A stretch of DNA of 27,462 nucleotides. Origin: a virus. The DNA lies in IMG/VR virus record IMGVR_UViG_3300013132_000210, positions 1-27,462 of that record; one strand, written 5' to 3'. Numbering within the stretch: position 1 is the stretch's first letter; each line of letters starts with the position of its first letter. Shown here in pieces: positions 5,894 to 13,819 of this stretch. A model generated the notes under the pieces. It was not told the DNA's origin, made no database searches, and saw nothing but the letters and a program-made list of their open reading frames with translations. The translations under genes were made by a program, and so were the position numbers.

Positions 5894-8800
5894 ATGCCAA
5901 TTAATTTAGATCAGACGGGCCCAGCACATTTATTAAGCACCGATGAAGATGGTCTGATCCTTAACGGCAGTCCAGTCATCTCAAAGAGCATTCATGTAAG
6001 TGACATTGAACCTAAAGATTGGTTTGGTGAAACTAACAAAAAATTATTATGGTTGGACACAGGAGTAGTTGGAACTAGTGTATTTCCTCTAGGTGGTGCA
6101 GCAAATTATATCCTACGCACTGATGGAAATGGCACAGTAAGTTGGATTCCACCTAGTAGCATAGATGCTACTAAGTTTCATTACTTAATTAGCACTGATA
6201 ATGCTAATAGTCCTGCTCCTACAACAGGTCGTATTAAGTTTATTAGAGCATTTGGTGCTGATATGAGCACTACTACCAGTTTGGCATTGAGTGGCACTGA
6301 TAAATCTGGTAACGATATAAGTGATTTTATCAATAGTCTTAGTGATTATGGTAATGTTAATCGCAGAGGCTTCATTAAAATTGAAAAAGAGAATGATCCA
6401 AACTTTTTTCAGATATATTCATTTAGTACTATAACAGATAATACTGGTTGGTTCAATTTAACAGTCACCTCAGTGAGGGTGGATTTAGGTGATGAAAACT
6501 TTACCAACAATGATCCAGTCAGTATCACATTTACACCAAGTGGTCCAGAAGCAATAACACAGGATTTATCTAATTATCTAACATTAGATGGTACTCAAAC
6601 TACAATATTAAAAACATTAAGTAAGCCACTAATAAAAGAACCTTCATTAATTGATAATAGTTTTAGTTTACAAGGTATGGATATTGGTAGTAATGGTGTT
6701 ATAACTTGTGATTCATTTGATTTAAGTAGTGTTAATATCGGTTCATCAGGTTTAATAGTGTGTTCAGCCAGTAATTTTAATATTGGTGATAGGATTTATG
6801 TAAGTGGGGCCAATACAGGAACTGGATCTATAGATAATTACAACGATTTAGGGACTTTATATTATATAATAGGTACAAATGGTACCACTGAGTTTGTAAT
6901 AAGTGAAACCTTTGATGGGTCCTACGTCAATACTACAGTTGGTTCAGTAACTGGAGCAATAACTTTTACCCGAGTAGTATTCAATGTACACGATGCAGTT
7001 AGGATCAGTGGGTCAAATAGTGGAACTGGTCTTATTTCTGGTTATAATACTAGCGGTACTGTATATTATATCACAGCAACTAATGGTAGAGATACATTTA
7101 CTCTAAGCCAAATCATGGGTGGTACTCCCATTTCAACCACTGCTGGTACTGTTCTTGGTGCTATGACCTTTGTGAGTAATGTCGGTACCACTATTACTTT
7201 CGAAGATTCAGATTTATCAAATGTATTTAAAACTAGATTAAGTGTTGTAAGTTCTAGTGATAATCAAAAAATATTACTTCCTGATCATACAACTACGCTT
7301 GTAGGTATAGATACTACGCAAACACTATCTAATAAGACTATAATTGAACCAGTTATTAAAGATCCAGATATTGAATTGACATGGACTGGCGTTAATGCTG
7401 CTACAAATATTACGATATCTAGTAGTTTAGCCACAGATTTTAATACTAGGATTGGTACCACTGCTAATAATCAATATAGCTGGACTACTAATTTGTACTA
7501 TGATGGTACACAATGGTTAAAAGATGACAATCTTAGAGGAGCATGGCGTCTAAATCAAATTGCTTTAATTACAGATGCTCAAAGTGAAGTGGCGTTAACT
7601 TATGCTCCTGTAGGTAGTAACAATGTAGAAGATAGATTAAGAATTAGAGGTGATGGTCGTGTATTATTAGAAGGCAATGTACCTAGCACAGACATTAGTA
7701 CAGGTACTTTAATTGTTACTGGCGGTGTTGGAATTAGTGCCGATGTTAATATCGGCGGTGATACTAGTATAACTGGAATACTTGAAGCAGGAGCAGTTGA
7801 AAGTACACCGATAGGTTTATCATTCAGATCAACTGGCGCATTTACTACTCTGGCAGCAAATGGTATACTGCAAGTAACTGATGCTACAGCCAGTACAAGT
7901 AAAACAACTGGAGCAGCAGTTATTACTGGAGGACTTGGTGTAGGTGGTGCTGCTTATGTAAATGGTCCTGTGTACATAAATGATATAGATCCATTAGACG
8001 AAACAGAACTAACAGGGTATAGTTTAGTAGTTCAAAATCCACAAGCTAAAGTGAGAGTAGGTCCTAATTATACTGCTGGTGCTGTAGATTATATTGACTT
8101 AATAACACAAACTGACAATCCAAACATATCAACAACCAGTGATAATTTTACACTGGATAATTTACAGAGTGGCGGAAATATAACATTAACAGCTACAGAT
8201 GCTAGTGTAATTATTAATGAAGTTACAGTGGCTTCTGATAAAGTTACAGGTGCTTTAAAAGTAGCAGGCGGTATTGGAGTTGAACTAGATATTCATGCAG
8301 ATGATATATATGTTTATGGACAATCTGGTCTAAACGATATAGCCAGTCAAGTTGTTTCATTGGCTGCTGCTCAAACATTAACAAATAAAACATTAAACGC
8401 ACCTACTATTGATGATGTAGTATTAACAGGCACAGTAAGCGCAAATAATTCTACTGGTATAGCAGGACAATTGTTAGCAAGTACAGGTACTGGTATAGAA
8501 TGGATTAATCCTGTTGACTTTACTGCGGTAATTTATCCAAAAGTAGCAGATCAAAATATTAATCCTTCTGGTGACGTCAGTTGGAGTGCTACACCAACAC
8601 TGAGTTTAGGTGTAAGTTTTGGTACTATGGCTTCTAATGGTGTGTTTACTTTTAGTGTTACTGGCACATATCTAGTAGTGTTGAACTATAGTTTAACTGA
8701 TATTAACGGGGGAAGTACTTATCCTGCTACAGATTTTTGGTTGAAGAAGAATAATGTTAATGATGTTAAGTATGGTCAGATATTAACCAATAGTAGTCGA

Positions 8801-8929
8801 AGAGGCAGCGTATCTGAAATTATAAGTTTTGCTACTAATGATACTTTGATTTGGTTCATGAACAGTGTAATGAGAGTAAATGGTGGGTCTGCAACAGGTA
8901 GTAGATTGACTATCATTAGACTATCTTGA
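5894..8929 (+). CDS. Tail fibre-like structural protein with C1q/TNF-like C-terminus
   Basis: This 1011-residue protein starts 13 bases after the collagen-like fibre stop; the upstream TAAGGG gives only a weak ribosome site. The N-terminus is a typical phage-fibre start, containing LLWLDTG near residue 50. Residues about 293-427 hold two copies of a beta-rich module (core G.I.VSG.NTGTG, then GT.YYI). LSNKT at 478 and LTNKT at 829 are motifs common in phage fibres. Three repeats with a TGGVGI/TGGLGV/AGGIGV core near residues 606, 675 and 788 suggest a beta-helical or trimeric shaft. Residues about 876-1011 look like a C1q/TNF jelly roll: GVFTFSVTGTYLV, then a WLKKN strand and a final GSRLTIIRLS strand. 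It is probably a receptor-binding or accessory fibre. It could instead be a baseplate-attached protein; the exact T4 equivalent is not recognisable. Confidence 0.75.
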   Translation: MPINLDQTGPAHLLSTDEDGLILNGSPVISKSIHVSDIEPKDWFGETNKKLLWLDTGVVGTSVFPLGGAANYILRTDGNGTVSWIPPSSIDATKFHYLISTDNANSPAPTTGRIKFIRAFGADMSTTTSLALSGTDKSGNDISDFINSLSDYGNVNRRGFIKIEKENDPNFFQIYSFSTITDNTGWFNLTVTSVRVDLGDENFTNNDPVSITFTPSGPEAITQDLSNYLTLDGTQTTILKTLSKPLIKEPSLIDNSFSLQGMDIGSNGVITCDSFDLSSVNIGSSGLIVCSASNFNIGDRIYVSGANTGTGSIDNYNDLGTLYYIIGTNGTTEFVISETFDGSYVNTTVGSVTGAITFTRVVFNVHDAVRISGSNSGTGLISGYNTSGTVYYITATNGRDTFTLSQIMGGTPISTTAGTVLGAMTFVSNVGTTITFEDSDLSNVFKTRLSVVSSSDNQKILLPDHTTTLVGIDTTQTLSNKTIIEPVIKDPDIELTWTGVNAATNITISSSLATDFNTRIGTTANNQYSWTTNLYYDGTQWLKDDNLRGAWRLNQIALITDAQSEVALTYAPVGSNNVEDRLRIRGDGRVLLEGNVPSTDISTGTLIVTGGVGISADVNIGGDTSITGILEAGAVESTPIGLSFRSTGAFTTLAANGILQVTDATASTSKTTGAAVITGGLGVGGAAYVNGPVYINDIDPLDETELTGYSLVVQNPQAKVRVGPNYTAGAVDYIDLITQTDNPNISTTSDNFTLDNLQSGGNITLTATDASVIINEVTVASDKVTGALKVAGGIGVELDIHADDIYVYGQSGLNDIASQVVSLAAAQTLTNKTLNAPTIDDVVLTGTVSANNSTGIAGQLLASTGTGIEWINPVDFTAVIYPKVADQNINPSGDVSWSATPTLSLGVSFGTMASNGVFTFSVTGTYLVVLNYSLTDINGGSTYPATDFWLKKNNVNDVKYGQILTNSSRRGSVSEIISFATNDTLIWFMNSVMRVNGGSATGSRLTIIRLS

Positions 8930-8931
8930 TA

Positions 8932-8959
8932 TTGACAAAATAAAAAAAATCTATATAAT
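8932..8959 (+). promoter_or_regulatory. Near-consensus sigma70-type promoter for sugar-modification cassette
   Basis: TTGACA (8932-8937) and TATAAT (8954-8959) are perfect -35 and -10 hexamers 16 bp apart, in the gap just after the fibre stop codon. Transcription would begin near 8966, giving a leader of about 16 nt before the ATG at 8982. No Shine-Dalgarno sequence is visible in that leader. Confidence 0.8.
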
Positions 8960-8981
8960 ACTAGCATAGATAACTACAACT

Positions 8982-9728
8982 ATGCAAGACTTAGGATTAT
9001 ATTGCCTGTGTTATGTGGGCCGAGAACCAAAAAAACATCAATATGACCAACACAATGTTATGTGCGGGTCGATTAATTATGATTACACTGATATTGTAAA
9101 TATGCAACGTCGTGGATTTATAATGGATCATATTGGTCAAGAGCACATTAGTCATATGAATAATGATTTTGGAAGTTTGACAGGTCTTTATTGGGTCTGG
9201 AAAAACACGGATCATCCATACAAAGGCACTAATCAATATAGGATATATTGGGATGAGGATTTTAAGTTAAGGCCAAATAGAGTTTATGTTCCTGAATCTA
9301 AAGATATTGTTACTGCTATAAAAGGTTTTGCTCCTCATGTGGATAACGTATATGATCATTTTAGTCATTGCCATAATCATTTAGGTTGGCAATTACTTTA
9401 TGGATTAGCAGGAGATAGAAAGATACCTATAACTTTTGATATGATAGATCAGTTAAGAACTTATAAGTATCTTATTCCTTTTCATATGTTTATTGCTGAA
9501 GGAAATCTTTTTAATAAGATTTGTGAAATATTATTTCAAGTTTTGTTTGAGTTTCACAATCAGTATTCTTCAATATTACCTGAGATATATAGGCGCAATC
9601 AACAAGTTAGATTCTATGATTTTTTTGCAGAAAGAATTTTACACTTAATTTTGTCAAACAATTACTATTTTTTAGGTAGTGTTGATGTAGTACATTTAAA
9701 TATTTTGGATATAGACCATCATGCTTGA
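8982..9728 (+). CDS. DUF4422-type glycosyltransferase
   Basis: This 248-residue protein shows the layout of DUF4422 proteins, found in capsular and lipopolysaccharide synthesis clusters. SLTGLYWVWKN (residues 65-75) is followed by a K-G-x-x-QYR segment (81-87), matching the family's hallmark 'YW.WKN ... G..HYRR' in slightly altered form. Near the C-terminus, FHMFIAEGNLF and a later FFAERILHL segment match the family's second conserved block. It probably transfers a sugar in the cytoplasm; donor and acceptor cannot be read from sequence. It is first in a three-gene plus-strand unit behind a strong sigma70-like promoter, and its last 8 bases overlap the next gene, which suggests translational coupling. 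It is out of place in a late structural region, so it is probably an acquired accessory gene. Confidence 0.75.
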   Translation: MQDLGLYCLCYVGREPKKHQYDQHNVMCGSINYDYTDIVNMQRRGFIMDHIGQEHISHMNNDFGSLTGLYWVWKNTDHPYKGTNQYRIYWDEDFKLRPNRVYVPESKDIVTAIKGFAPHVDNVYDHFSHCHNHLGWQLLYGLAGDRKIPITFDMIDQLRTYKYLIPFHMFIAEGNLFNKICEILFQVLFEFHNQYSSILPEIYRRNQQVRFYDFFAERILHLILSNNYYFLGSVDVVHLNILDIDHHA

Positions 9729-10974
9729 AACAAATAAAATGCACCCATTTCTCCTTGATTATATAAGAGATCCAGTTAATCCAGAGTTAAACTTTAACAT
9801 GGCATTAGAGTATGATAATATAGGCCAATTGGCCAGTGCTGTTAGTTATTATTTAAGAACTGCTGAAAGAGCCAATACTGATCTATTAAAATATGAATGT
9901 TTAATAAGGGCTGCTATTTGTTTTGAGAAACAAGGAAGTAGAAACTTTACTGTAAAAGGATTATTGCAACATGCTGTTTCAATATTACCTAATAGACCAG
10001 AAGCATACTATCACTTAAGTAGATTCTATGAGCACAAACAGGATGATGGGCATTGGAATGATACTTACATGATAGCCAGTATAGGTGAAAATGTTGCTGA
10101 TTATGCTAATAATGGACTACGTACTGATGTTGGATATTTAGGTAAAGATAGTTTATTATTTCAAAAAGCCTTAAGTGGTTGGAATTGCGGCCTTTGTGAT
10201 GAGAGTAGAAATATATTTAAAAGTTTAATGCGTAGTAACCAACTACCAGAAGATTATAAACGCATTGTTTATAATAATTTAAAATTCATGAGTAATTACA
10301 TTGAGATACCATTTGATACTTATGATAAGAGCAAGTATAATAAATTACGTTATAAGTTTCAAGGTGCTGAAAATATTGAAATAAATTATAGTGAAGCATA
10401 TCAAGATATGTTTGTTCTTAGTATGTTAAATGGTAAAAGAAATGGAACTTTTATTGAAGTAGGTGCAGGTAGACCATTTTACGGAAATAATACAGCATTA
10501 TTAGAAAAAGGCTTTAATTGGCGTGGTATGAGTATTGATTTAGATGAACGCCAAGTTAGTAATGATAGAAAAACTCCATTTCTAATTAAGAATGCTTTGG
10601 AAGTTGATTATGTGAGAATTATTCGAGAATTAAGTTTAGGTCCAGTAATAGATTATTTACAACTTGATTGTGATCCTCCAGAAGTTACCTTTGAAATTTT
10701 AAAGAAAATACCTTTTGATAATTTTAAGTTTAGGGTAATAACGTATGAGCATGATTATTATAACACTGATAAAAAAGAACTTAGAGAGGAGTCAAGAAGA
10801 TATTTACAATCTAAAGGATATAAGTTAGTGGTTAAGGATATTGCACCAGATGAATGGAGAAATTATGAGGATTGGTACGTACACCCAAATCACATAGATA
10901 AAAACATTCTTGATATAATGTTAGACCAAAGCGATAGAACTAAAAAAGGTGAAGATTACATTTTAGCAGGTTAA
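9721..10974 (+). CDS. TPR-like / FkbM-family methyltransferase fusion
   Basis: This 417-residue protein appears to have two parts. Residues about 15-210 are helical and TPR-like, with pairs such as NFNMALEYDNIGQLASAVSYY and a PEAYYHLSRFYEH helix. Residues about 222-400 resemble FkbM (Methyltransf_21) SAM-dependent methyltransferases: a YSEAYQDMFVL entry helix, the SAM-binding loop FIEVGAGRP (244-252), and an acidic motif-II residue D273 in GMSIDLDE. FkbM-like enzymes often O-methylate sugars in glycan clusters, and TPR-methyltransferase fusions are known in glycan and surface-modification loci. Its start overlaps the glycosyltransferase before it, and a second glycosyltransferase follows after 6 bases. 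The likely role is methylation of the glycan made by its neighbours; the substrate is inferred from context. Confidence 0.72.
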   Translation: MLETNKMHPFLLDYIRDPVNPELNFNMALEYDNIGQLASAVSYYLRTAERANTDLLKYECLIRAAICFEKQGSRNFTVKGLLQHAVSILPNRPEAYYHLSRFYEHKQDDGHWNDTYMIASIGENVADYANNGLRTDVGYLGKDSLLFQKALSGWNCGLCDESRNIFKSLMRSNQLPEDYKRIVYNNLKFMSNYIEIPFDTYDKSKYNKLRYKFQGAENIEINYSEAYQDMFVLSMLNGKRNGTFIEVGAGRPFYGNNTALLEKGFNWRGMSIDLDERQVSNDRKTPFLIKNALEVDYVRIIRELSLGPVIDYLQLDCDPPEVTFEILKKIPFDNFKFRVITYEHDYYNTDKKELREESRRYLQSKGYKLVVKDIAPDEWRNYEDWYVHPNHIDKNILDIMLDQSDRTKKGEDYILAG

Positions 10975-10980
10975 TAAATT

Positions 10981-11760
10981 ATGATTCCAGTAATAGGTAC
11001 AGCAGTAGTTTTTACAACACATTGGGTAGAGAGATTGCTAGCCAGTGTAGATTTCCCTGTAGAAAACTTTCTCATTATTAATAATAATGGTAAAGGTGAG
11101 ATCACAGAAAATTTAGATGCACTAGCAAAAATTAAACGTCGTTATATTAAAAACGTACATGTAATTCACATGCCGTGTAATCTAGGAGTTCCAGCAAGTT
11201 GGAACTTAATTATTAAATGTTATATGATGGCTTCTTACTGGGTTATTGTAAACGATGATGTAGCATTTGGCACCGGAATACTTCAAGAGATATATGATAA
11301 AGTAAATGAAGATCCTGAAGTTGGAATTATACATGCTAACCAAGGAGATTTCAATGTTGGTAGTTGGGATTTGTTTTGTTTAAGAGATCACGCAGTAGCA
11401 AAGTTTGGACTATTCGATGAAAATATGTATCCAGCATATTGTGAAGATGATGATTATATTATGCGTATGATGCATGCCGGTGTAAAAAAGGTATTAGGAT
11501 TAAGTAAAAATTATTATCATGGTGCTGGTGATAAAACAGAATATCACTTTCATGGTGGTAATACTCGTAGGCATGATCCAGAAGTTATGAAAAAGTTAGA
11601 TGAAGCCCGTGATATGAATATAGAATATCTAACAGAGAAATGGGATAAACATTGGCGTACTTGTTGGCCTACTACTGAACCATGGCAAGGAAAGCCTCAT
11701 GTTTTAAATGAGCAAAGATATGATTTAGAATTTTTACGTAAAAAGTATGTAGGATTTTAA
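10981..11760 (+). CDS. GT-A fold (family 2-like) glycosyltransferase
   Basis: This 259-residue protein has the shape of a small GT2-type glycosyltransferase. A beta strand with FLIINNNG opens the nucleotide-sugar fold, followed by the NLGVPASWN motif typical of rhamnosyltransferase-like GT2 enzymes. NDDV (residues 91-94) sits where the metal-binding DxD lies, and ECDDD-like acidic residues E155-D158 occur where the catalytic acid is expected. It follows the methyltransferase by 6 bases. Its stop codon overlaps by 4 bases the stop of the convergent Nudix gene, so no separate terminator fits between them. Donor and acceptor are unknown. Its presence with two other sugar-modifying genes suggests a short modified glycan. 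Confidence 0.75.
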   Translation: MIPVIGTAVVFTTHWVERLLASVDFPVENFLIINNNGKGEITENLDALAKIKRRYIKNVHVIHMPCNLGVPASWNLIIKCYMMASYWVIVNDDVAFGTGILQEIYDKVNEDPEVGIIHANQGDFNVGSWDLFCLRDHAVAKFGLFDENMYPAYCEDDDYIMRMMHAGVKKVLGLSKNYYHGAGDKTEYHFHGGNTRRHDPEVMKKLDEARDMNIEYLTEKWDKHWRTCWPTTEPWQGKPHVLNEQRYDLEFLRKKYVGF

Positions 11761-12260
11761 AATAAATTAAAAACATCAAAAACAGTTTTTAGTTTATTTC
11801 TTATATGTTTATTACTAAAACTACTACGTAATCCTTGATGTAAAGGTTTAGGACTTAGATCAATAGTAGTCCAACAATATCCAGAATGTTCATTGCTTAG
11901 TATAGGTATAAATTCATTTTTAACCACACATAGAAAAGTATGAAAATGAAAGACTTTATCGTTGCTGACAAATGTTTCTAATGGAATGGATTTGATGATA
12001 TCAGGCATATCACCAATTTCCTCATTGATCTCTCTTAATAAACTTTGCCAAGGATTTTCCCCTATTTCAGCAGTACCGCCTACTAAACTCCATGTTCCCT
12101 GATGTTTACCATTAGATTTTTGAAGTAATAAAATTCTTTTTGTATTTTTAGCATAAAATAATGCACCACTACAAACAATTTTATCCTTTACAGTATTAAT
12201 CTCCAACTCCCTCGACGATATTCTCCGTGGAAACTTTTGCTCCATTTTATTCCATCCCAT
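11757..12260 (-). CDS. Nudix hydrolase
   Basis: The full Nudix box lies at residues 62-83: G62, E68, then R76-E77 and E80-E81 followed by G83, matching GX5EX7REUXEEXGU. GTWSLVGG just upstream is the usual lead-in. The enzyme would hydrolyse a nucleoside diphosphate linked to another group, such as a nucleotide sugar, an oxidised dNTP or an RNA cap; the sequence does not say which. The gene lies on the minus strand after gp15 and its first ATG overlaps gp15 by 73 bases. No good ribosome site precedes the ATGs at 12260 or 12245, and the domain itself begins around residue 28, so the real start could be further in (for example a TTG near 12206). It ends convergently against the glycosyltransferase gene. 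Confidence 0.8.
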   Translation of the reverse strand: MGWNKMEQKFPRRISSRELEINTVKDKIVCSGALFYAKNTKRILLLQKSNGKHQGTWSLVGGTAEIGENPWQSLLREINEEIGDMPDIIKSIPLETFVSNDKVFHFHTFLCVVKNEFIPILSNEHSGYCWTTIDLSPKPLHQGLRSSFSNKHIRNKLKTVFDVFNLF

Positions 12261-13819
12261 TTGTATTGTACATTACTATGTATGTTAGTTAGGTAGAATA
12301 TGGTATCTTTTTCTTTCATACTATCAAATATAACGTGCCATGTAGAGCCAGTCCATTCAATTATATCATTAGTGTTAGCAACAAAGTCAACTCCAGCAGT
12401 ACTTTTCCATGCATCGGGTCCATCTTCATCTGTATAAAGTATATAGGTAATAATATCATCAACTACCGCATCATTAATTAATCTTATGACCAACTTTCCA
12501 TCTATATCAAGTTGAGTAAAAGAAACAGCAACATCGTTTACAAAAATTTCTACATCTCTTACTTGATAAAAGTCCACATTAGTATCGATTCTATTACTGT
12601 TATTATTAGCAATTAATGTTTCTCTAATACCACCACCAATATTATTAACAAGTAAGTATCTTGTTCCTACAGTAGGTGAGGGCAAGCCTGCATTGGGTCC
12701 TTTGGTTTGAGGGTCAATAATAGCATCAAAAGTTCCAGGACTATTAGTTCTATATGGACTAGGTATATCAGTATTACTAGGATAAGTGTCTGGATCCCAA
12801 TTAATATTAAGACATGTTTCATCTAATGGATCTATAGCAATAGTTCCTACCACATCCATACCGTTTGGCTGTGTTAAAAATATTTTACTTTCACCTGCGG
12901 TGTATGTGTCAACTTGTTTACCAAAGATAACTCTCCAACTTACAGCATTACTAGTTGCTTCTTCAGTATACATTATATCATCATTTTTATGACCTTCTGC
13001 TGTAGGACTAAAAACTTTAGCACAATTACCGTAGACAATTATTGCAAAATCCGTAGTTTCAATAATAATAGGATTGGGAATTTCATCATAAGGATTTCTA
13101 AAACCTTCGTTAGGATCTAATCCTATGCCCTCAATATATCCATCAGCAGGAGGCCCAATGCTTGAAAACATACTCATTATAATACGACTAACTATACCCA
13201 GTTTCTTAACTTTGGCTGGAGGACTGATCCATATGGGCATACTAAAAGTTAGTGTAGCAATATCTATTGGTGTATCTTGACCCACTGGAATTTGTCTACT
13301 ACTAAATTGAACGTCATCCAAATACACCACACTGAGACTAGTCCAATCTACAAAATTATCTGTAGTCTGTATATCAAGACTGGGATTAAACAGCATCAGT
13401 ATTTGTTCTAGTATTTGTAGTTTTTGATCAGTGTTGCCAGTCCAAATGTCTGCTTTTACACTGAGTTTATAAGGTGTTGGCATTAATCTTTCAACAGTAT
13501 AATTACCACCTTGACTACTATTATACTCACCGTTTTCAACGCCTCTCTCACGTAGGTGTATTTTACCTACAAAAGTAGAATCCGCTAATCTTTCTTTGTC
13601 CATTTCAAGACCTGAAATGTATACTGCAATTCTTGGTGGACCATTTACTTTGTTTTCACTATTTTGTTTTATAATATTTGCAACTTGTCTATCCATGTCA
13701 CCGTAGATGACAGGTACAGGAACTAATCTACCATCACCGTATTTTATTACAAAGTTGCTGAGTAATCGTATAGTCTGTAGGAGATAACGTCTTATTTGCC
13801 CGTCATAAAAATGTTGCAT
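12188..13819 (-). CDS. 15: Tail sheath terminator/stabiliser, T4 gp15-like, with long C-terminal extension
   Basis: The first ~210 residues follow T4 gp15 closely in pattern: an FYDGQIRRYL start, VPVPVIYGDMDRQ, a PRIAVYISGLEMD strand, MPTPYKLSVKADIWTGN, an ILEQIL.LFNPSLDIQ segment, and TLTFSMPIWISPPAK. gp15 forms the ring that terminates the sheath and tube and joins tail to neck. T4 gp15 is about 270 residues; this one is 543. The extra ~330 residues include Nudix-unrelated beta-rich segments such as RYLLVNNIGGGIRE and end in Trp/Tyr-rich WHVIFDSM and YKWDGIKWSKSF, like add-on modules of marine phage structural proteins. It follows gp14 directly with a TAATG stop/start overlap at 13819. It is on the opposite strand from gp13, gp18 and gp19. 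Confidence 0.82.
   Translation of the reverse strand: MQHFYDGQIRRYLLQTIRLLSNFVIKYGDGRLVPVPVIYGDMDRQVANIIKQNSENKVNGPPRIAVYISGLEMDKERLADSTFVGKIHLRERGVENGEYNSSQGGNYTVERLMPTPYKLSVKADIWTGNTDQKLQILEQILMLFNPSLDIQTTDNFVDWTSLSVVYLDDVQFSSRQIPVGQDTPIDIATLTFSMPIWISPPAKVKKLGIVSRIIMSMFSSIGPPADGYIEGIGLDPNEGFRNPYDEIPNPIIIETTDFAIIVYGNCAKVFSPTAEGHKNDDIMYTEEATSNAVSWRVIFGKQVDTYTAGESKIFLTQPNGMDVVGTIAIDPLDETCLNINWDPDTYPSNTDIPSPYRTNSPGTFDAIIDPQTKGPNAGLPSPTVGTRYLLVNNIGGGIRETLIANNNSNRIDTNVDFYQVRDVEIFVNDVAVSFTQLDIDGKLVIRLINDAVVDDIITYILYTDEDGPDAWKSTAGVDFVANTNDIIEWTGSTWHVIFDSMKEKDTIFYLTNIHSNVQYKWDGIKWSKSFHGEYRRGSWRLIL

What the first reader, a model, noticed from the sequence alone, without database searches (positions are those of the whole stretch)
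8932..11760. Three-gene glycan-modification cassette inserted among virion genes under a sigma70-type promoter
A DUF4422 glycosyltransferase, a TPR-FkbM methyltransferase fusion and a GT2-type enzyme form one tight unit behind TTGACA/TATAAT, sitting between fibre genes and neck genes. Together they could make and methylate a short glycan. Two testable ideas: glycosylation of the Ser/Thr-rich fibre modules next door (virion decoration), or early change of the host surface to block superinfection. The near-perfect host-type promoter favours early expression. I know of no described phage system with exactly this trio.
Basis: partly seen in the sequence, partly recalled or inferred. Interest (0 to 1): 0.65.

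Follow-up and report, generated by a model that had tools for sequence, protein, structure and literature searches.

The report
Phage cassette for sugar-coating tail fibres
Three adjacent genes in a large freshwater-type phage form one version of a widespread, virus-only set of sugar-adding and methylating enzymes that usually lies beside tail-fibre genes, so the virus probably decorates its own fibres with a methylated sugar; this is predicted from sequence and has not been shown in the laboratory.

Summary
Three intact genes (DUF4422/GT111-type glycosyltransferase; TPR plus FkbM-like methyltransferase; GT2-type glycosyltransferase) lie behind a perfect TTGACA-16-TATAAT, between collagen-like/fibre genes and tail-terminator/neck genes of a T4-like jumbo phage. 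The trio keeps order and place in 29 related contigs. TTGACA is invariant in 25 of 25 upstream regions, and the genes are under purifying selection.

New here: the trio is one form of a modular cassette. Its core, a ~200-residue TPR module, was found in at least 599 viral stretches, in 2 of 50,697 phage records and in none of 84,980 prokaryote species by the scan used. It is paired with the GT2 enzyme in 41 of 50 clusters and with a GH130/GT108-like enzyme in 42; DUF4422 takes that slot here. Swappable partners are methyltransferases, GT25, GT17, radical-SAM and 2OG-oxygenase enzymes. Neighbours are mainly collagen-like, tail-fibre, sheath and terminase genes. No enzyme of the trio has a membrane segment.

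Best reading: cytoplasmic O-glycosylation and methylation of collagen-like/Thr-rich fibre proteins, resembling C. difficile SgtA (GT2+TPR) acting on collagen-like BclA3. Early change of the host surface remains the main rival. The glycan and the substrate are unproven.

The parts
8932..8959 (+). sigma70-type promoter TTGACA-16-TATAAT
   Evidence: 12/12 match, the only one in the window, 0.10 expected; TTGACA invariant and TATAAT nearly so in 25/25 relatives
8982..9728 (+). DUF4422 (GT111-type) glycosyltransferase, 248 aa
   Evidence: Pfam 2e-23; profile matches WbbM 6u4b at 1.2e-10; alignment A3
9721..10974 (+). TPR module (about residues 1-205) plus FkbM-like class I methyltransferase domain, 417 aa
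   Evidence: TPR_17 over cut-off; 5/22 relatives match PF05050; model pLDDT 85.6, TPR half resembles the OGT TPR superhelix; invariant E246, G248, D273 and D311-Y-L-Q motif
10981..11760 (+). GT2-type (GT-A) glycosyltransferase, 259 aa
   Evidence: PF00535 over cut-off, PHROG galactosyl transferase 2e-25; invariant D93, E155-D156 and H180-G181 across relatives down to 45% identity
1..5880 (+). collagen-like fibre ORF (open at the left end), 338 GXY triplets, Q/V/I-rich, Thr-rich near the C-terminus; candidate substrate
   Evidence: a collagen-like ORF lies upstream of the fibre gene in all 16 related loci checked
5894..8929 (+). S/T-rich fibre protein, 1011 aa; candidate substrate
   Evidence: 10% S, 13% T; syntenic in relatives; no Pfam or PHROG match
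11757..12260 (-). NUDIX hydrolase, converging on the cassette; neighbour, probably not part of the unit
   Evidence: Pfam 2.2e-17
12188..13819 (-). T4 gp15-like tail sheath stabiliser; right boundary marker
   Evidence: Pfam 1.3e-25

Best explanation
The three genes are a lineage-specific form of a modular, virus-only cassette that glycosylates the phage's own fibre proteins in the host cytoplasm. The TPR module recruits the acceptor polypeptide (collagen-like Gly-X-Y repeats or the S/T-rich fibre). The GT2 enzyme adds, or starts, a sugar on Thr/Ser. The DUF4422 enzyme extends it (in other lineages a GH130/GT108-like enzyme holds this slot). The FkbM-like domain O-methylates the sugar as a cap. 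A host-type promoter has the enzymes made before or along with the late fibre proteins. Shown here: the genes, their conservation, synteny, modular co-occurrence, fibre-rich neighbourhood, solubility and promoter. Inferred: acceptor, order of steps, sugar identity, methylation of the sugar, and timing.
For: Trio in one order and place in 29 contigs; purifying selection, pN/pS 0.05-0.24, like gp13/gp15. Partners in 50 clusters: GH130-like 42, GT2 41, FkbM-like 34, 2OG-oxygenase (DUF6445 type) 26. Collagen-like ORF within 5 kb upstream in 13 of 29 clusters with enough flank, against 4.6% of genes (p about 1.5e-10; 9/25, p about 1e-6, without the window's clade). The commonest families among 108 other neighbours are tail fibre, collagen, sheath stabiliser and terminase; no flippase or lipid-carrier transferase is among the 25 listed. 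No membrane segment in the trio. Neighbouring GXY repeats are mostly Q/T/I-rich with almost no Lys. Precedent: SgtA (GT2+TPR), encoded immediately upstream of collagen-like bclA3, puts O-GlcNAc on Thr of its GXY repeats (PMC7157674).
Against: No glycan, proteomic or expression data. About half of the TPR clusters have no collagen-like ORF within 5 kb. The window's collagen triplets are poor in Thr (3.7%) except near the C-terminus. A host-type promoter is not needed for a late virion function. DUF4422, GT2 and GT25 families are best known from O-antigen synthesis, and published readings of phage glycosyltransferase clusters favour host-surface change (PMC7029224, PMC7824862). TPR modules are generic protein binders.
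Confidence: 0.52

Rival explanations
1. Early host-surface modification: the enzymes are made at the start of infection from the host-type promoter and alter or cap the host's LPS/O-chain or another surface glycan, excluding superinfecting phages or protecting released progeny.
For: Perfect host-type promoter conserved in the clade, the only strict one in the virion block of the 400-kb relative, with others before early-type and replication-type genes. DUF4422 resembles WbbM, an O-antigen synthase (PMC12269835). The 400-kb relative has a second glycan locus with GT17, the GH130-like enzyme and a nucleotidyltransferase under a similar promoter. Published interpretation of phage glycosyltransferase clusters.
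Against: No membrane segments; no flippase, acyltransferase or lipid-carrier enzyme among the neighbour families listed. The TPR core is absent from prokaryote genomes, although surface-glycan enzymes are usually acquired from hosts. Neighbours are fibre, sheath and terminase genes in unrelated phages. Outside this clade promoter scores equal background.
Confidence: 0.27
2. The cassette modifies another protein, such as a host receptor, pilin or transporter, or a virion protein other than the fibres (sheath, neck, head); the fibre-gene neighbourhood is incidental.
For: The TPR module is a protein-binding fold, and about half of the clusters lack a collagen-like neighbour. Mycobacteriophages glycosylate capsid and tail-tube proteins (Freeman et al. 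2023, as cited in PMC12619734).
Against: Enrichment for collagen-like and tail-fibre neighbours.
Confidence: 0.14
3. DNA hypermodification: the glycosyltransferases glycosylate modified bases of the phage genome.
For: T4-type relatives are known for this (own knowledge).
Against: The 400-kb relative has no thymidylate-synthase-family gene that could be a base hydroxymethylase. The Tet_JBP search was silent too, but its controls were also silent. The enzymes cluster with fibre genes, and a TPR-methyltransferase has no role in known base glycosylation.
Confidence: 0.04

Closest known systems
Clostridioides difficile SgtA / BclA3 (spore collagen-like glycoprotein)
   Same: TPR module plus GT2-type glycosyltransferase encoded beside a collagen-like protein; cytoplasmic O-glycosylation of Thr in Gly-X-Y repeats (PMC7157674)
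   Different: SgtA is one polypeptide and is not viral. Here TPR is fused to a methyltransferase and the GT2 enzyme is a separate gene (TPR and GT2 are fused in L136, L137, L200); the phage cassette adds further enzymes. Not shown to be homologous beyond the generic folds.
Mycobacteriophage virion glycosylation (Freeman et al. 2023)
   Same: phage-encoded glycosyltransferases acting on virion proteins
   Different: there capsid and tail-tube C-termini; here the neighbourhood suggests fibres. The paper is not held in the library; known only as cited in PMC12619734.
WbbM / GT111 (DUF4422) galactosyltransferases
   Same: the DUF4422 domain of the first gene (1.2e-10 to 6u4b)
   Different: stand-alone single-domain phage protein, not an O-antigen polymerase; donor sugar unknown
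Glycosyltransferase clusters of jumbo cyanophages and pelagimyophages
   Same: several glycosyltransferases in T4-like phages near host-recognition genes
   Different: those reports describe no TPR core in the passages read; they read the clusters as LPS diversification
Synechococcus phages DSL-LC02 and S-SCSM2R; Pontimonas phage phiPsal1
   Same: DSL-LC02: collagen-like gene, then GH130-like, TPR-FkbM-radicalSAM and DUF6445-type genes; S-SCSM2R: GH130-like plus TPR-methyltransferase; phiPsal1: glycosyltransferase-methyltransferase-GT2 between capsid and neck genes
   Different: different first enzyme and different fusions; in phiPsal1 only the GT2 gene was found related (32%)

Membership tests
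DUF4422 / GT111 | Pfam DUF4422 profile over curated cut-off | tested here: met
   83.8 bits against 25; 6u4b WbbM 1.2e-10
DUF4422 / GT111 | galactosyl (Galf) transfer activity | not testable with these tools
   needs enzymology
GT2 (PF00535) | profile over cut-off with conserved Asp-rich (DXD-type) motif and catalytic acidic pair | tested here: met
   24.4 bits against 23.3; D93 and E155-D156 invariant in 18 sequences
FkbM methyltransferase (PF05050) | profile over curated cut-off for this protein | tested here: not met
   15.4 bits against 22.7; it is therefore called FkbM-like only. 5 of 22 relatives match at E<=0.01, best 1e-5
FkbM methyltransferase (PF05050) | class I methyltransferase fold | tested here: inconclusive
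   model shows alternating strands and helices after residue 240, but the fold searches were filled by the TPR half
TPR | TPR profile over cut-off and helical-pair superhelix | tested here: met
   TPR_17 25.5 against 24.4; OGT TPR 1w3b Z 15.7, 4.0 A over 168 residues
SgtA/BclA3-type collagen glycosylation | GT2 enzyme and TPR encoded beside a collagen-like gene | tested here: met
   GT2 and TPR adjacent, collagen-like ORF 3.1 kb upstream of the first gene; recurs in 13/29 clusters
SgtA/BclA3-type collagen glycosylation | glycan on Thr of the Gly-X-Y repeats | not testable with these tools
   needs mass spectrometry
Mycobacteriophage-type virion glycosylation | glycan on virion proteins | not testable with these tools
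   no virion material
Gtr-type serotype conversion | membrane flippase GtrA and membrane-anchored GtrB | tested here: not met
   no segment above a Kyte-Doolittle mean of 1.17 in the three proteins; no such family next to the cassette
T4-type DNA base glucosylation | thymidylate-synthase-family base hydroxymethylase in the genome | tested here: not met
   none in the 400-kb and 183-kb relatives; the window itself is a fragment

The most novel reading that the evidence does not exclude
A general, virus-only post-translational modification system for phage fibres: a TPR scaffold onto which lineages plug hydroxylating (2OG-oxygenase), glycosylating (GT2, GT25, GT17, DUF4422, GH130/GT108-like), methylating and radical-SAM enzymes to build lineage-specific caps on collagen-like, Thr/Gln-rich fibres. 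It would be a phage counterpart of collagen modification in animals and spores, almost unseen so far because cultured phages rarely carry it.
Probability: 0.38. Interest if true: 0.85.

Novelty: new variant of a known kind. Interest (0 to 1): 0.6.

Why it matters
If fibres of abundant aquatic phages carry phage-made methylated glycans, then adsorption, host range, particle stability and evasion of host or grazer recognition depend partly on a post-translational code that sequence-based receptor prediction does not see. The cassette's mix-and-match enzymes would make that code testable: one isolate (S-SCSM2R on Synechococcus WH7803) and a three-gene expression assay are enough to begin. It would also settle which of two published explanations for phage glycosyltransferases, host-surface change or virion decoration, applies here.

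Tried and rejected
(1) The promoter as a general feature of the cassette: outside the window's clade only 5 of about 42 cassettes have a site of 11/12 or better within 120 nt, against 7-12% of all genes, so it is lineage-specific. (2) T4-type late promoters: TATAAATA with up to one mismatch is not enriched in the window (81 found, 93 expected), and no exact copy lies within 120 nt upstream of the cassette. (3) Hydroxylysine-type collagen glycosylation: Lys is nearly absent from the repeats, so Thr/Ser is preferred. (4) DNA modification: no hydroxymethylase-type gene in the closest long relative; the Tet_JBP search was uninformative because its controls were silent. (5) Fold searches on the TPR-methyltransferase model only placed the TPR half; the methyltransferase half stayed untested by fold. 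(6) The first TPR alignment was too diverse for a genome scan; a narrower one gave 32 pattern hits, none a relative, which is a negative at that sensitivity only. (7) The NUDIX pN/pS numbers look like an artefact of my script and are not used. (8) The GH130-like partner had no Pfam or PDB sequence match; its predicted fold matched GH130/GT108 enzymes. (9) Literature searches found no description of this cassette in the open-access library; subscription papers are mostly not held.
Full report
WHAT IS THERE. The window is a complete 27,462-base virus record from a T4-like phage. Its terminase is closest to those of jumbo phages such as Pseudomonas phage PA5oct (54.6%), and one close relative record is 399,796 bases long. 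The three reported genes exist exactly as described: DUF4422 8982-9728, TPR plus FkbM-like 9721-10974, GT2-type 10981-11760. They are packed as an operon (8-nt overlap, then a 6-nt gap) behind TTGACA-16-TATAAT at 8932-8959. This is the only perfect site in the window, with 0.10 expected by chance. Upstream lie a collagen-like ORF (338 Gly-X-Y triplets) and an S/T-rich fibre ORF. Downstream, on the other strand, lie a NUDIX gene, the gp15-like tail sheath stabiliser and a virion protein, and then the head-tail adaptor.

THE UNIT IS CONSERVED. In 29 related viral contigs the three genes keep the same order and the same place. Where the contig is long enough, the neighbours are the same too: fibre gene upstream, then NUDIX, gp15 and neck genes downstream. 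I found no close relative with the full region that lacks a member. Codon changes show purifying selection (pN/pS 0.05-0.24 against 0.07-0.32 for gp13 and gp15). The TTGACA hexamer is invariant in all 25 upstream regions compared, and 21 of them have all 12 consensus bases, although the flanking fibre sequence has diverged.

THE TRIO IS ONE FORM OF A MODULAR CASSETTE. Only 2 of 50,697 phage records carried it, and no confirmed relative turned up in 84,980 bacterial and archaeal species with a narrower alignment. One of the two phage records, DSL-LC02, is itself a metagenome assembly. I grouped the fetched loci into 50 TPR clusters and labelled the genes around them. A GH130/GT108-like enzyme is present in 42, the GT2 enzyme in 41, the window-type methyltransferase in 34, a 2OG-Fe oxygenase-like (DUF6445 type) in 26, other methyltransferase types in 17 and 10, GT17-like in 14, GT25-like in 13, radical-SAM in 11 and DUF4422 in 7. 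Many of these are fused to the TPR module or to the GT2 enzyme, including TPR and GT2 in one polypeptide (L136, L137, L200). The GH130-like identity rests on a predicted structure (pLDDT 82.1, pTM 0.86) whose best solved matches are mannoside phosphorylases and the GDP-mannose-dependent transferases of Leishmania. In the window's clade the first slot holds DUF4422 with the same 8-nt overlap into the TPR gene that many GH130-like cassettes show. The 400-kb relative still carries the GH130-like gene at 278 kb, under its own TTGACA-16-TATAAT.

WHERE IT SITS. Collagen-like ORFs are rare in these genomes (2-4 per 180-400 kb). Yet one lies within 5 kb upstream of the TPR gene in 13 of 29 clusters with enough flank, against 4.6% of genes in three long records (p about 1.5e-10). 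Without the window's clade it is 9 of 25 (p about 1e-6). Clusters are not fully independent, so these values overstate certainty. Without relying on the collagen test, I scanned 108 other unlabelled neighbours of cassettes outside the window's clade. The most frequent families were tail fibre, tail protein, collagen-like minor tail, T4 gp15, peptidase S74 and terminase. No flippase or lipid-carrier family is among the 25 Pfam families listed. The three window proteins have no membrane-like segment.

HOW IT MOST LIKELY WORKS. Shown: genes, conservation, modularity, neighbourhood, promoter. Inferred: the TPR module binds the acceptor, the GT2 enzyme glycosylates Thr/Ser, DUF4422 extends, and the FkbM-like domain methylates the sugar. 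The nearest worked example is C. difficile SgtA, a GT2+TPR protein encoded immediately upstream of collagen-like bclA3, which places O-GlcNAc on Thr of its Gly-X-Y repeats (PMC7157674). The repeats beside the phage cassettes are mostly rich in Gln, Thr and Ile and nearly free of Lys, which argues against a hydroxylysine route. In the window itself Thr is scarce except in the last part of the collagen-like region, so the S/T-rich fibre ORF is an equally good acceptor.

THE PROMOTER AND TIMING. In the 400-kb relative there are 36 strict sites against 3 for the reversed pattern. Thirteen are packed into 10-19 kb before small ORFs; others precede genes whose sequences look like recombination and clamp-loader genes (my reading of the translations). 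The cassette's is the only one between 79 and 194 kb, which includes the virion block. This supports transcription by the host polymerase before or independently of late genes. It does not decide between virion decoration and host-surface change. A control showed that the promoter is not a feature of the wider cassette family, which weakens any argument that early expression is essential to its function.

RIVALS. Host-surface change is the published reading of glycosyltransferase clusters in T4-like aquatic phages (PMC7029224, PMC7824862). It stays at about 0.27 because DUF4422, GT25 and GT2 enzymes are typical of O-antigen synthesis and because of the second glycan locus in the 400-kb relative. 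DNA glycosylation is unlikely, since no thymidylate-synthase-family gene was found in the two closest long records.

MEMBERSHIP. The first gene is a DUF4422 member and the third a GT2 member by curated cut-offs. The second has a genuine TPR module, but its methyltransferase half misses the FkbM cut-off and is called FkbM-like only. The cassette works like SgtA/BclA3 glycosylation by anatomy; I do not claim homology with it.

VERDICT. A real, conserved and functional glycan cassette and a better-than-even case for fibre decoration, without biochemical proof. The specific trio is a new variant of a known kind (phage-encoded glycosylation). The wider TPR-centred modular family appears undescribed in the open-access literature searched.

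Noticed in passing
L270:17316-19153 and L271:437-4818 (400-kb relative, 277.3-284.8 kb): A second glycan locus: GT17-like, GH130-like (under TTGACA-16-TATAAT at 279187), an NTP-transferase (MobA-like) and other genes, including one encoding a RuBisCO-large-like protein (PF00016, 1.5e-30).
   Followed up: partly
L046:4682-5460: The GT2 gene of contig 3300019093_000068 is split into two frames (frameshift or assembly error), while its near-identical relative L043 is intact.
   Followed up: no
window 12188-12260: The NUDIX and gp15 genes overlap by 73 nt on the - strand; the overlap is kept in nearly all close relatives.
   Followed up: no
G003 (400-kb relative) 10.3-19.4 kb: An array of 13 host-type promoters, 12 of them with the spacer start TTGACAGG(T/A)CTTT, before small ORFs: a probable early region.
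   Followed up: partly
window 8960-8981 and homologous leaders: A conserved leader (consensus TAGCATAGATAACTA) follows the -10 box, and no evident Shine-Dalgarno sequence precedes the DUF4422 start.
   Followed up: no
L143 (Pontimonas phage phiPsal1) 3282-5654: A glycosyltransferase, a methyltransferase and a GT2-type gene lie between the capsid and neck genes of an unrelated phage: the same kind of trio, with only the GT2 gene related by sequence.
   Followed up: no
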